A model generated the notes under the pieces. It was not told the origin of the DNA, did not search any database, and was given only the letters and a program-made list of their open reading frames with translations. Shown in pieces: positions 36,920 to 52,043 of a DNA stretch of 64,000 bases. A program made the position numbers and the translations under genes. Origin of the DNA: Meiothermus sp. (GTDB taxonomy: Bacteria; Deinococcota; Deinococci; Deinococcales; Thermaceae); contig BPIL01000014.1 of NCBI GenBank assembly GCA_026004095.1, positions 1 through 64,000 of the forward strand, written 5' to 3'. Positions within the stretch are counted from its first letter, which is position 1, and each line of letters opens with the position of its first letter.

Positions 36920-39526
36920 TTACCCCAGGCGGGCCAGGTTTTGCCGGATGCGCTCGAGCTGGGCCTGGTTCTCGGCTAGCCGTTCCCGCTCGGCCTGCAC
37001 GATGGCCGGGTCGGCCCGCTCCACAAAACCCGGGTTGGCGAGTTTTTTCTGCCCCTGCTCAACCTGTTTTTCCAGCTCGAGCAGCCGCTTGCGCTGGCGC
37101 TCCAGGAAGCTCGATAGGTCGCCTTCGGGCTTAAGGTAGACGGTGGTGTTAGCGGTCACCTGGGCAATGGCCTTTTCAGGGCTACCTATAGAGGCCTGGG
37201 CTTTGCTGAGGAAGCGGAACAGCGCCAGGTTCTCCATCACCAGCGCGGCCCCCGGCCCCTCCAGATGCACCGCGACTTCCTGCTGGGGCGGGATGCCCAG
37301 CTCGGCCCGCAGGTTGCGGGTGGCGGTGATGGTGGCCTGCAGGGTTTCGAAGGCTTTTTCGGCCTCGAGGTCGCGCGCACCGGCCTGGGGCCAGTCCTGC
37401 AGGGCTAGCTGGGTGGTATCGCCGGTGAGGGCCTCGTACAGCTCCGAGGTGATGAAGGGCATGATGGGGTGCAGTAGCTTGAGCAGGGCCGCCAGGGTAG
37501 ACTCCAGGGTGTGCAGGGTGGCCTGGTTGCCCTCGCGCAGCGCGGGCTTGGCGGCCTCCAGGTACCAGTCGCAAAACTCGCTCCACACCAGCTCGTAGAC
37601 CAGCCGGGCGGCCCGGCCCAGGTCGAAGGCCTCGTAGGCCTCGGTAATCTCGGCGATGCCCCGGTTCAGGCGCGAAACCATCCAGCGGTCGGCCAGGGTG
37701 GGGGCGGCCGGGGCGCTGGAGCGGCCCGCCTGCCTGTTCATCAGCACGAAGCGGGCGGCGTTGTAGAGCTTGTTGGCAAAGTTGCGGCCCTGCTCGTAGC
37801 GCCGCTCGTCGTGGCGGATGTCCTGCCCGCCCGTAGCCAGATAGTCCCAGGCGAAGCGGCAGGCGTCGGCCCCGTATTTATCAATCAGCTCGAGGGGGTC
37901 GATGCCGTTGCCCTTGCTTTTGGACATCTTCTGGCCCTTGGCGTCCAGGTACAGCCCGTGCAGCACGATGGTGTGGAAGGGGGCCCGACCGGTGAACTGG
38001 TAGCCCGACATCTGCATACGGGCCACCCAGAAGAAGATGATGTCGTAGCCCGTTACCAGCACGTCGGTGGGGTAGTGCTTCTTCAGGTCGGGGGTGGCCT
38101 CGGGCCAGCCCAGGGTAGAAAAAGGCCACAGCGCTGAGGAGAACCAGGTGTCGAAGACGTCCTCGTCGCGTCGCAGCTTGAGGTGGGCGTAGCGGGGATC
38201 CTGGTCGCAGTCGAGGTCGGGGTTGTCCGGGTCGGGCACGTAGACGTTGCCCTCCTCGTCGTACCAGGCCGGAATCTGATGGCCCCACCAGAGCTGCCGG
38301 GCGATGGCCCAGTCCTTGATGTTTTCCAGCCAGTCGCGGTTGACCTTCTCCCAGCGCTCGGGCACGAAGCGCATCTCGCCTCTATCCAGGCCTTCCAGCA
38401 CCTTTTGGGCCACCGGCTTCATGCGCACGAACCACTGCTCGAGCAGGAGGGGCTCCACCGGGGCCTTGGTGCGGTCGGAGTAGCCCAGGGCGATGGTGTA
38501 GTCGCGGACTTCCCGCAGGTGCCCGGCTTCCTCCAGCGCCTGCACCACCCGCTTGCGGGCCTCGAAGCGCTCCAAACCCCGGAACGGCTCGGGCACCAGC
38601 TCGCCCGCAAGGCAGCCCTTCAGGTCAATCACGCTGGGCATCTCCAGGTGGTGCCGGCTGCCGATCTCGAAGTCGGTGGGGTCGTGGGCCGGGGTAATCT
38701 TCAGGGCCCCGGTGCCGAAGTCCATCAGCACCGCTTCATCGGCGATGATGGGAATGTACCGCTCGGTGAGGGGGATGCGGGCTTTTTGTCCAATTAAGTG
38801 CCGGTAGCGCTCGTCGGCGGGGTTCACCGCAACGGCCACATCGGCAAAGATGGTCTCGGGGCGCACCGTGGCAATCTGAATCTCGCCGCCCCCTGCCAGG
38901 GGGTAGGCCAGGGTGTAGAGCTTGCCGGGGGTGGGCTCGACGTTGACCTCGAGGTCGCTCACCACCGTCTGGGCCACCGGATCCCAGTTCACAATGCGCT
39001 TGCCCCGGTAGGCCAGCCCCTGGTGGTAGTACTCGATGAAGGCGCGCCGCACCGCGCGGGAGAGCCCTTCGTCCATGGTGAAGCGCTCGCGGCTCCAGTC
39101 GCACGAAGCCCCGATGCGCCGGAGCTGGTGCAGGATGGCGCCGCCGTTTTTCTCCTTGAAAGCCCAGACCCGCTCCAGAAACTTCTCCCGGCCCAGGTCG
39201 TGGCGGGAGAGCCCCTCCTGGGCCAGTTCTTTTTCCACCAGCACCTGGGTGGTGATGCCGGCGTGGTCGGTGCCGGGCAGGTACAGGGCCTCGTAGCCCT
39301 GCATGCGCTTGAAGCGGATGATGGTGTCGATGATGGTGTTGTCCAGCGCGTGGCCCAGGTGCAGGTTGCCGGTCACGTTGGGCGGTGGGATCACGATGGT
39401 GAAAGGCCCCTTGCCCTTGTGGGCGTTGAGTTCGGGCTTGAGGGGGTTCTGGGCCCATTCCCGGGCCCAGCGGGGCTCCACTGCCTGGGGGTCGTAGGCT
39501 TTGGGTAGTTCCTTAGGTTCGGTCAT
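36920..39526 (-). CDS. valS: valyl-tRNA synthetase
   Basis: Class I aminoacyl-tRNA synthetase charging tRNA-Val. The HIGH motif is in PNVTGNLHLGHALDN and KMSKS in KGQKMSKSKGNGIDP. A CP1 editing domain lies between them, and a C-terminal coiled coil (ERQRKRLLELEKQVEQGQKKL) follows. The ATG ending at 39526 (MTEPKELPK) is preferred because AAGGAGA precedes it; this gives 868 aa. It overlaps the preceding unknown gene by 14 bp and lies in an operon controlled by a T-box leader with a valine specifier. Confidence 0.97.
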   Translation of the reverse strand: MTEPKELPKAYDPQAVEPRWAREWAQNPLKPELNAHKGKGPFTIVIPPPNVTGNLHLGHALDNTIIDTIIRFKRMQGYEALYLPGTDHAGITTQVLVEKELAQEGLSRHDLGREKFLERVWAFKEKNGGAILHQLRRIGASCDWSRERFTMDEGLSRAVRRAFIEYYHQGLAYRGKRIVNWDPVAQTVVSDLEVNVEPTPGKLYTLAYPLAGGGEIQIATVRPETIFADVAVAVNPADERYRHLIGQKARIPLTERYIPIIADEAVLMDFGTGALKITPAHDPTDFEIGSRHHLEMPSVIDLKGCLAGELVPEPFRGLERFEARKRVVQALEEAGHLREVRDYTIALGYSDRTKAPVEPLLLEQWFVRMKPVAQKVLEGLDRGEMRFVPERWEKVNRDWLENIKDWAIARQLWWGHQIPAWYDEEGNVYVPDPDNPDLDCDQDPRYAHLKLRRDEDVFDTWFSSALWPFSTLGWPEATPDLKKHYPTDVLVTGYDIIFFWVARMQMSGYQFTGRAPFHTIVLHGLYLDAKGQKMSKSKGNGIDPLELIDKYGADACRFAWDYLATGGQDIRHDERRYEQGRNFANKLYNAARFVLMNRQAGRSSAPAAPTLADRWMVSRLNRGIAEITEAYEAFDLGRAARLVYELVWSEFCDWYLEAAKPALREGNQATLHTLESTLAALLKLLHPIMPFITSELYEALTGDTTQLALQDWPQAGARDLEAEKAFETLQATITATRNLRAELGIPPQQEVAVHLEGPGAALVMENLALFRFLSKAQASIGSPEKAIAQVTANTTVYLKPEGDLSSFLERQRKRLLELEKQVEQGQKKLANPGFVERADPAIVQAERERLAENQAQLERIRQNLARLG

Positions 39527-40250
39527 TGCTTCTCCTTGGTGACAGGTAATAACGCTTTTCTCTGTCCTTAAAGTTGGCTTCCTCGTAGGCCACCCCAATC
39601 ACTTCGGTGTTTTCATCGAAGGTGTGGCTCCAGAAACCCACGGTCAGGCGGTTGCCCTCGAGGCTCACCGTGCCCACCGCTATTTCCTCCCAATCCTGCT
39701 CTTCGCCGTCCTCATCGAGCAGCTCGAGGTCTATTGCGTCAAGAGTGCAGACCTGGCCCACCAGGCTGCGGATGGGGTTGTTGGGCTGGCCAAAGTGGGC
39801 GCTGAACTCCGGGCGGAAAGGGGTGTAATCAATGCTGGCGACCAGCAGGTAGTCGCCCAGCTCCCATTTGCACGAAAGCAAGGGGGGTAGCGGTTTGTCC
39901 CGGTCGGGGTCGTAGTCGGGCGGGGGGGTAACGATGGGGGTATTGAGCAACTCGATGACCATCTGCTTGCGGACTTTATTGCTAACCTCAATGGGCGCAC
40001 GCCGGCCCAGCAAGTCTTCCATGTTCCAGTGCTTGAGGCGGGACTTCAGGGTGGTAAGGGCCTCCTCGAGGCTATTCACAATTCGCATGGGGTCGCCGCG
40101 ATGAAGAAAGTACCAGCCGGGGTATTCCTCCGACTCTGTGGCCGGTATTTCCTCCCCTAGCAGCTTGAGGGGCTGTGGCTCCCGGCTGAACCAGTAGAGG
40201 CCGGGTTCATAATGGGGCTCGAGCTGCCATTCCCTGGGAATATCGTTCAT
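39513..40250 (-). CDS. uncharacterised 245-aa protein in the T-box/valS operon
   Basis: I do not recognise a domain. The protein is acidic, soluble-looking, Trp/Tyr-rich (YEPGLYWFSREPQPLKLLG, YPGWYFLHRGDP) and has two halves joined near a Pro-rich PPPDYDPDRDKPLPP. A strong GGGAGG lies before the ATG. It sits between a valine-responsive T-box leader and valS and overlaps valS by 14 bp, so its synthesis should rise when charged tRNA-Val falls. A role linked to valine or tRNA charging is an inference from position only. Confidence 0.75.
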   Translation of the reverse strand: MNDIPREWQLEPHYEPGLYWFSREPQPLKLLGEEIPATESEEYPGWYFLHRGDPMRIVNSLEEALTTLKSRLKHWNMEDLLGRRAPIEVSNKVRKQMVIELLNTPIVTPPPDYDPDRDKPLPPLLSCKWELGDYLLVASIDYTPFRPEFSAHFGQPNNPIRSLVGQVCTLDAIDLELLDEDGEEQDWEEIAVGTVSLEGNRLTVGFWSHTFDENTEVIGVAYEEANFKDREKRYYLSPRRSNDRT

Positions 40251-40369
40251 AGCACCTCCCTAACGTCGCTGGAAAAGAAGCGCGTGCGATCGGTTCGTCA
40301 CGCACACCGCCCACCTTGATGCCGGACTCCAGCCTGTCCGCTGCTCCCTCATCCTCACCACGCCCTATA

Positions 40370-40405
40370 AACAAAAGCGCCCCTGCAGGCTTTGCTGCAC
40401 GGACG
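40370..40405 (-). terminator. T-box intrinsic terminator
   Basis: Minus-strand stem of 11 bp with one mismatch (40395-40405 with 40378-40388), 6-nt loop, followed by CTTTTGTTT. It lies immediately downstream of the T-box motif and is the expected alternative to the antiterminator. Confidence 0.8.
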
Positions 40406-40634
40406 AGGAAAACCCCGCGGTACCACCGCGCTTCCTGAAGCGCCAGCAGGGCTTCAGGCGCTCAAAATGTGCTGTAACGGGCACCCCCGGCAGGCTCTAC
40501 TGGGCCAGATGGCCGTTCTTCCTGCAGGCTCGCGGGCGACGTTCGGCTGGTGCGTTTCCAGGTGCCCTCTCAGCCGGTGGAGCACCCTTGCTGTGGGCGC
40601 GGCCAGCCTACTCTTCCCGGTCTACGCCACAACC
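40370..40634 (-). promoter_or_regulatory. T-box riboswitch, valine specifier GUC
   Basis: Reading the minus strand, the leader has the Stem I purine motif GGAAGAGTAGG near its 5' end, a distal AGAGGGCACCTGGAAA region and a specifier-loop context GAAC-GTC-GCC with GTC (Val) at plus 40538-40540. The highly conserved T-box core GGTGGTACCGCGG (plus 40415-40430 region) follows, then the terminator. The UGGU that pairs with the tRNA acceptor end matches a discriminator A. Uncharged tRNA-Val would stabilise the antiterminator and turn on the downstream unknown gene and valS. Confidence 0.9.
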
Positions 40635-40635
40635 C

Positions 40636-40641
40636 AGTATA
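40636..40641 (-). promoter_or_regulatory. -10 element (TATACT) of the T-box transcript
   Basis: Minus-strand TATACT lies just before the predicted leader start. The -35 region falls at the edge of the ISAs1 remnant and is poor. Confidence 0.5.
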
Positions 40642-40659: not shown

Positions 40660-41177
40660 TTTCTCAAAAGGCCCCCCGGGAAGACGCCTTCCCGCCATCC
40701 CCTTGAACACCTCCAGGGCCCACTCCAAAAGTTCCCCCTGGTTCCCCTTCAGGACCAAGAGATAGTCCCCCCTTTTTTCCGCACCCGGGCCGCCACCTCA
40801 GGGTACAGGTACCCCGCGTCCCCCACCACCACCTTGCCCTCCAGCTCCCTCGCCTCCAAACGGTCCAGAAGCTCCAGGAAGGCCTTCTCCTCCCTCCCTT
40901 CCGCCCGGGCCTGGGCCAGGGTGGTATGGAGGTGCAGGGCCAGGACCTCCACCAGCTTGACCTGGGGGCTTTTCCCCTTGCCGCTTCCCCGCAGGTGCTT
41001 CCCGTCCACCACCAGGACCTCCCCAAGGTCGGCTTCGGGGAAGACCTGGCCAAGGGCCGCCTGGAGCTTCTCAGGATCCAGGCGGTGAAGGAGAAGGGTG
41101 ATGGCGGTGTGGCCTGGGGCCTTGCGCAGGCCCAGGTGGGGCAAGAGGTGGGGGTTGGCGCGGGCAAAGCGTTCCAT
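40660..41177 (-). pseudogene. ISAs1-family transposase remnant
   Basis: From 41177 the frame reads RFARANPHLLPHLGL, LLLHRLDPEKLQAAL and VLVVDGKHLRGSGKGK, typical of ISAs1/H-repeat transposases (first catalytic Asp in VVDGKHLRG). After an A6-G6 run near 40764-40775 the frame breaks, and the continuation (DYLLVLKGNQGELLEWALEVF) is in the -1 frame. N-terminal residues and the C-terminal third are missing, so the element is dead. It sits between a truncated membrane gene and the T-box promoter. Confidence 0.8.
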
Positions 41178-51879: not shown

Positions 51880-51920
51880 ACCCTTCACCAGGCGGCCGTG
51901 CCTGGTATCAAGGCTCTAGG

Positions 51921-52039
51921 CCTTATCCAGAGCAGCGGACAGGGCAACTGCCCGACGGGAACGGCCCGATGAAGCTGCGGCAACCTGCCAAAGGCAAGGT
52001 GCCAATTCCGGCCCGGCCTCTGCGCCGGGAAAGATAAGG
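51921..52039 (+). promoter_or_regulatory. SAM-I (S-box) riboswitch
   Basis: All core features of the S-box are visible in order: P1 5' strand CCTTATC (51921-51927) followed by AGAG, a P2 kink-turn region ending GGCCCGATGAAGC, the GCGGCAACC segment, AAGGTGCCAATTCC and the P1 3' strand GATAAGG (52033-52039). No terminator hairpin follows. Instead the P1 3' strand runs into AAGGGGG before the cysC start, so SAM-stabilised P1 should hide the ribosome-binding site. Confidence 0.93.
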
Positions 52040-52043
52040 GGGT

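What the first reader, a model, noticed from the sequence alone, without database searches (positions are those of the whole stretch)
36920..40641. Valine T-box leader controls an uncharacterised gene together with valS
The minus strand carries a complete T-box: Stem I GGAAGAGTAGG motif, specifier GTC at plus 40538-40540, core GGTGGTACCGCGG and a terminator with U-run. The first gene it controls is not valS but an unknown 245-aa protein (39513-40250) that overlaps valS by 14 bp. A gene induced by uncharged tRNA-Val and coupled to ValRS could assist charging, editing, valine supply or stress response. T-boxes outside Firmicutes are relatively uncommon.
Basis: partly seen in the sequence, partly recalled or inferred. 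Interest (0 to 1): 0.72.

Follow-up and report, generated by a model that had tools for sequence, protein, structure and literature searches.

The report
Valine T-box with accessory gene, valS
In a Meiothermus bacterium, an RNA switch that should sense uncharged valine tRNA stands before the valine-tRNA synthetase gene and a small uncharacterised gene in front of it; the switch is ordinary for this group of bacteria, while the extra gene belongs to a protein family not found in the libraries searched, whose function remains open.

Summary
The minus strand carries a full-length valine T-box (Rfam RF00230, 76.5 bits, E 6.7e-17; gathering score 93 not reached) with specifier GUC, a UGGU bulge matching the ACCA end of the genome's tRNA-Val(GAC), and a terminator that excludes the antiterminator. 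It precedes a 245-aa gene ("VAP") overlapping valS by 14 bp. A GTC T-box lies upstream of valS in 23 of 23 non-Thermus Thermaceae genomes, and 103 of 111 genomes of the phylum have a T-box: the regulator is ordinary here. VAP has no significant match in Pfam, NCBIfam, PHROGs, PADLOC or PDB sequences. It is under purifying selection and sits upstream of valS in 36 of the 39 genomes that have it. It is not bound to T-box or valS: 12 of those 23 genomes lack it, 27 of 27 Thermus have it without a valS T-box, and in 3 valS is elsewhere. In relatives the slot holds NUDIX or methyltransferase genes, or nothing. Best reading: an accessory passenger of a valine-starvation operon, perhaps a binding protein; a direct role in charging is unsupported.

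The parts
40636..40641 (-). putative -10 element TATACT
   Evidence: read; exact TATACT in 18 of 23 leaders in the 35 nt scanned before Stem I. No consensus promoter found.
40396..40633 (-). valine T-box leader RNA (Stem I to antiterminator)
   Evidence: RF00230, 76.5 bits, E 6.7e-17, full model; 26 of 57 consensus pairs with compensatory changes over 21 leaders
40538..40540 (-). specifier codon GUC (Val)
   Evidence: GTC in 23 of 23 leaders; tRNA-Val(GAC) in the same genome
40415..40427 (-). T-box/antiterminator core GGTGGTACCGCGG; UGGU can pair with ACCA of tRNA-Val
   Evidence: tRNA-Val(GAC) ends CCCACCA
40368..40405 (-). intrinsic terminator hairpin (40378-40405) and T-rich tail; shares CGTCC with the antiterminator
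   Evidence: sequence; -16.5 kcal/mol; not listed by the simple scan
40260..40352 (-). 30-codon ORF (MREQ...) between terminator and the 245-aa gene; possible remnant of the NUDIX gene start found here in relatives
   Evidence: alignment: ATGAGGGAGCAG resembles the start of the NUDIX genes of G013 and G020; similarity beyond that is weak, so suggestive only
39513..40250 (-). VAP (my name), uncharacterised 245-aa protein, first full-length gene of the operon (Shine-Dalgarno GGGAGG 40255-40260)
   Evidence: family in 39 of 111 genomes; no Pfam/NCBIfam/PHROGs/PADLOC hit
36920..39526 (-). valS, valyl-tRNA synthetase, 868 aa, overlaps VAP by 14 bp
   Evidence: TIGR00422 and NF004349 above cut-off

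Best explanation
A class I (transcription-terminating) T-box riboswitch senses uncharged tRNA-Val(GAC). The specifier GUC pairs with the anticodon, the UGGU bulge pairs with the free ACCA end, the antiterminator forms, and RNA polymerase reads on into VAP and valS; when tRNA-Val is charged the terminator forms. VAP and valS are translated from one mRNA, probably coupled through the 14-bp overlap. VAP is a real, conserved but dispensable accessory protein carried in this valine-starvation-induced slot. Most likely it is a small acidic protein that binds another macromolecule rather than an enzyme, and it is not an obligate partner of ValRS. Shown computationally: RNA anatomy, specifier, operon layout, conservation, purifying selection, distribution. 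Inferred: the tRNA response, readthrough, coupling and VAP's binding role.
For: RF00230 full-length match; GTC specifier in 23 of 23 leaders; covariation; terminator and antiterminator share CGTCC; tRNA-Val(GAC) with encoded ACCA in the same genome. The same genome has T-boxes that I read as preceding glyS (GGC) and ileS (ATC), so the mechanism is in use there. VAP dN/dS 0.18-0.45 against 8 relatives, valS 0.06-0.14 against the same 8. VAP upstream of valS in 36 of 39 genomes and downstream of a T-box in 12 of 12 non-Thermus genomes that have it. In G049 the T-box appears to act directly on VAP: a -18 kcal/mol hairpin covers the Shine-Dalgarno of its VAP gene. The loss and retention pattern argues for an accessory. 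12 of the 15 invariant VAP residues are W, G, P, A or L.
Against: The T-box score is under Rfam's gathering score. No expression data. No consensus promoter, and the simple terminator scan missed the hairpin. Folded alone, the antiterminator stretch forms another hairpin and is no more stable than shuffles (z -0.27). VAP's dN/dS against its two closest relatives is high (0.39 and 0.45), compatible with weak constraint. The 36 of 39 adjacency could mean a stronger tie to ValRS than I allow. That VAP is a binder rests only on its composition, its conserved residues and an insignificant fold match.
Confidence: 0.72

Rival explanations
1. VAP is a dedicated ValRS helper: it binds ValRS or tRNA-Val and assists charging, editing or stability, which is why it is co-induced and translationally coupled.
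For: 36 of 39 VAP genes sit upstream of valS on the same strand; in the 11 T-box-led Thermaceae cases the two matches abut within 6 bp; the T-box covers VAP's own ribosome-binding site in G049.
Against: Of 23 non-Thermus Thermaceae, 7 have T-box and valS with nothing found between and 5 have NUDIX without VAP. Three Thermus genomes keep VAP beside an mrp-like gene while valS is elsewhere. Thermus VAP genes start right after a -10-like hexamer (7 of 7 named loci, by eye), so they seem to have their own promoter. VAP is acidic (pI 4.2-5.0 in 9 Meiothermus genomes, 5.7 in the one Thermus form computed), which does not favour RNA binding.
Confidence: 0.2
2. The T-box-valS interval is a capture slot: unrelated genes (NUDIX hydrolases, VAP, a methyltransferase) have entered it, or been left in it, so that they are induced by uncharged tRNA-Val. 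The NUDIX could clear Ap4A that synthetases make; VAP may serve the same starvation state by another route.
For: Between T-box and valS: NUDIX in 7 of 23 non-Thermus Thermaceae, plus G050, G055 and G056 in two other families; VAP in 11 of 23 plus G052; a methyltransferase (Pfam) in G108 and G109. [quoted passage not shown]
Against: NUDIX substrate cannot be read from sequence; NUDIX copies in G013 and G020 look decayed; in most other genomes of the phylum the T-box motif stands directly before valS (38 of 47 in G059-G110). The T-box of G108 rests on a motif only.
Confidence: 0.3
3. VAP's place is a historical accident: it is an independent gene between mrp and valS since before the Meiothermus-Thermus split, and the T-box simply reads through it.
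For: Thermus keeps VAP with its own start and no valS T-box; VAP stays beside the mrp-like gene when valS is elsewhere.
Against: In 12 of 12 non-Thermus cases the T-box is upstream of VAP, not between VAP and valS, and in G049 it masks VAP's ribosome-binding site.
Confidence: 0.25
4. The leader is a decayed, non-functional T-box.
For: Score below gathering threshold; a transposase fragment lies just upstream of the promoter.
Against: Diagnostic elements intact; invariant specifier and covarying stems in relatives; relatives score alike.
Confidence: 0.04

Closest known systems
T-box leader family (Rfam RF00230), transcriptional class I, valS type
   Same: Stem I with GGGAAGAGTAG motif, specifier loop GAACGUCG, antiterminator with T-box, terminator, upstream of a cognate synthetase
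   Different: High G+C, divergent copy under the gathering score; the first gene is not the synthetase
T-box-controlled hypothetical proteins listed by Wels et al. 2008 (PMC2494555, passages seen), e.g. spr0489 and str0474, 'Val-tRNA ligase related hypothetical'
   Same: An unknown gene assigned to valine by a T-box specifier, the same logic as here
   Different: Streptococcal genes; no sequence comparison with VAP was made here. The passages report two T-boxes (ile and gly ligases) in Deinococcus radiodurans and T-boxes in 1 of 3 Deinococcus/Thermus genomes; the supplement was not seen
NUDIX hydrolases (PF00293) in the same operon slot of relatives
   Same: Occupy the same position between valine T-box and valS
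   Different: Not matched to VAP by any search here; absent from the window apart from a possible start remnant

Membership tests
T-box leader (RF00230) | covariance-model match over the whole element | tested here: met
   positions 1-219 of 219, E 6.7e-17; the curated gathering score of 93 is not reached (76.5)
T-box leader (RF00230) | specifier codon matching the amino acid of the downstream synthetase | tested here: met
   GTC at 40538-40540; 23 of 23 leaders
T-box leader (RF00230) | cognate tRNA with complementary anticodon and NCCA matching the T-box bulge | tested here: met
   tRNA-Val(GAC), ends ACCA; bulge UGGU
T-box leader (RF00230) | mutually exclusive terminator and antiterminator | tested here: met
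   CGTCC shared; terminator -16.5 kcal/mol; 12 antiterminator pairs unbroken in 21 leaders. Against: simple scan missed the terminator, antiterminator stretch alone z -0.27
T-box leader (RF00230) | readthrough induced by uncharged tRNA | not testable with these tools
   needs in vitro transcription or expression data
valyl-tRNA synthetase (TIGR00422) | full-length match above curated cut-off | tested here: met
   990.6 bits, cut-off 612.1
any described protein family, for VAP | sequence match to Pfam, NCBIfam, PHROGs, PADLOC or PDB chains | tested here: not met
   no hit to the window protein in four libraries; best PDB E 0.37
PH/EVH1-like domain, for the VAP C-terminal half | significant fold match | tested here: inconclusive

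The most novel reading that the evidence does not exclude
The stretch between the valine T-box and valS in Deinococcota is a regulatory slot into which unrelated genes (VAP, single to triple NUDIX, a methyltransferase) have been recruited so that they respond to uncharged tRNA-Val; VAP is a new protein family acting in the valine-starvation response, possibly on ValRS side products, beside the NUDIX.
Probability: 0.25. Interest if true: 0.6.

Novelty: new member of a known kind. Interest (0 to 1): 0.36.

Why it matters
It gives a clear test case for using a T-box specifier to assign a physiological context (valine starvation) to a protein family without annotation, present in 27 of 27 Thermus and 9 of 18 Meiothermus genomes held here. 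It also qualifies the impression that T-boxes are rare outside Firmicutes: in this phylum 103 of 111 genomes have one. If the slot reading is right, it shows how a synthetase riboswitch acquires extra outputs.

Tried and rejected

Considered and rejected: VAP as a chance ORF; decayed T-box. That VAP is RNA-binding is disfavoured by its acidity but not excluded. The G055 ORF beside NUDIX has an HELAH motif but no Pfam match.
Full report
WHAT WAS CHECKED. The window is part of a Thermaceae genome (G000, contig C14). Contigs of same-genus genomes G021 and G007 have the same lengths as matching contigs of Meiothermus taiwanensis and M. hypogaeus in a named collection, so I take the genus to be Meiothermus; g4 is Thermus by the same reasoning. 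On the minus strand, Rfam T-box RF00230 matches 40396-40633 over its whole length with 76.5 bits and E 6.7e-17. The score is under the gathering score of 93, which is why the default scan did not list it. In the phylum 103 of 111 genomes have a T-box match at E 0.001 or better, and 14 of 111 one over the cut-off.

ANATOMY. From 5' to 3': TATACT at 40641-40636; Stem I with GGGAAGAGTAGG; specifier loop GAACGTCG with GTC at 40540-40538; core GGTGGTACCGCGG at 40427-40415; hairpin 40405-40378 with T-rich tail to 40368; a 30-codon ORF 40352-40260; VAP 40250-39513; valS from 39526. The specifier is GTC in 23 of 23 aligned valS leaders: 18 of the window's genus, two each of g2 and g3, and G049. TATACT stands at the corresponding place in 18 of 23. 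A consensus fold of 21 of those 23 leaders (the long G003 and G012 ones left out) has 57 pairs, 26 of them with at least one compensatory change; this structure is predicted on the same alignment, so the count leans towards it. The genome has tRNA-Val(GAC) ending ACCA, which fits the specifier and the UGGU bulge; the tRNA finder was given 30 loci out of 42 tRNA matches. The other two T-box matches of this genome precede ORFs that I read as glyS (specifier GGC) and ileS (ATC) from their sequences.

HOW COMMON THE ARRANGEMENT IS. valS was located in 105 of 111 genomes: 50 of 50 in the family, 8 of 9 and 47 of 53, with G051 (none found) in both of the last two. Each of the 23 non-Thermus Thermaceae genomes has a covariance-model T-box upstream of valS. 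Each of the 27 Thermus genomes has exactly one T-box match, on another contig than valS or at least 59 kb from it (stricter filters, which can lose weak matches). Only one of these 27, G023, was read: it precedes ileS. Of the 47 genomes G059-G110 with valS (families f4 and f5), 40 have the T-box core motif upstream of valS, 38 of them within 205 nt; the reverse-strand control in the same 205 nt gave 0 of 47. The covariance model at E 0.01 confirms 18 of the 46 of these loci that I gave it, five only in part (L238, 200 bp, left out); the rest rest on the motif alone.

WHAT STANDS BETWEEN T-BOX AND valS. In the 23 non-Thermus Thermaceae: neither family in 7 (G006, G008, G010, G011, G014, G015, G019; T-box core 78-213 nt from valS); NUDIX only in 5 (G001, G002, G003 double, G012, G016); VAP only in 9 (G000, G004, G005, G007, G009, G017, G018, G021, G049); NUDIX then VAP in 2 (G013, G020). 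So VAP is present in 11 and absent in 12 of 23. In other families: VAP in G052, double NUDIX in G050 and, with another ORF, G055, triple NUDIX with further ORFs in G056, nothing in G053 and G058. G057 has a triple NUDIX upstream of valS but no T-box match there; on the short G054 contig neither was found. G108 and G109 have a methyltransferase gene (Pfam Methyltransf_25). The NUDIX assignment rests on Pfam for two proteins (PF00293) and on my own profile for the rest. The NUDIX of G013 has lost the last glycine of the Nudix box and ends early, and that of G020 departs in its second half, so NUDIX seems to be decaying in these two genomes that carry both. The 30-codon ORF of the window begins ATGAGGGAGCAG like those NUDIX genes; this is suggestive only.

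MECHANISM. The tRNA-sensing steps follow from the established T-box mechanism (general knowledge) and the intact elements; they are inferred for this copy. In G049 the T-box is followed not by a long terminator but by a hairpin (CCTCGTCCGC/GCGGAGGAGG, -18 kcal/mol, z -4.51) that covers the ribosome-binding site of its VAP gene. There the T-box would control VAP translation directly. This is the best evidence that VAP itself, not only valS, belongs to the regulon. Against a tight functional bond to ValRS stand the 12 of 23 genomes without VAP, the 27 Thermus genomes with VAP but no valS T-box, and the three in which valS is elsewhere. A passenger of the starvation operon explains both sides best; what VAP binds is open.

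KNOWN OR NEW. T-boxes before synthetases are classical. Wels et al. 2008 (PMC2494555, passages seen) list hypothetical genes assigned by T-box specifiers, report ile and gly T-boxes in Deinococcus radiodurans, and T-boxes in 1 of 3 Deinococcus/Thermus genomes. In the held library the searches found no paper with both 'T-box' and 'Meiothermus', and the listings of two searches on T-box, NUDIX and synthetase or valS showed none evidently on this operon; most subscription papers are not in it. The regulator is a new member of a known kind; VAP is an undescribed family by the libraries searched.

Noticed in passing
window 51920-52040, + strand: SAM riboswitch (RF00162, 73.7 bits, above gathering score).
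   Followed up: no
window 40749-41177, - strand: Fragment of an ISAs1-like DDE transposase, just upstream of the T-box promoter; the matching stretch of the close relative G009 reads differently (by eye).
   Followed up: partly
L094:781-1046 (G049): T-box whose last hairpin covers the ribosome-binding site of its VAP gene instead of forming a long terminator: apparently translational control, unlike Meiothermus.
   Followed up: partly
L199, L200, L201, L203 (G050, G055, G056, G057): Double or triple NUDIX genes upstream of valS, in three of the four behind a T-box match; G055 adds a 354-aa ORF with an HELAH motif and no Pfam match.
   Followed up: partly
L230:2369-3004 and L249:324-1106 (G109, G108): A methyltransferase gene (Methyltransf_25) between T-box core and valS.
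   Followed up: partly
G043:C3:37518-40100 and G043:C15:27370-29961: A Thermus genome with two nearly full-length valS matches; only the C15 copy has VAP upstream.
   Followed up: no
L062, L063, L064, L065 (VAP coding regions): Long aspartate/glutamate-rich insertion in VAP of close relatives, missing in the window's copy.
   Followed up: no
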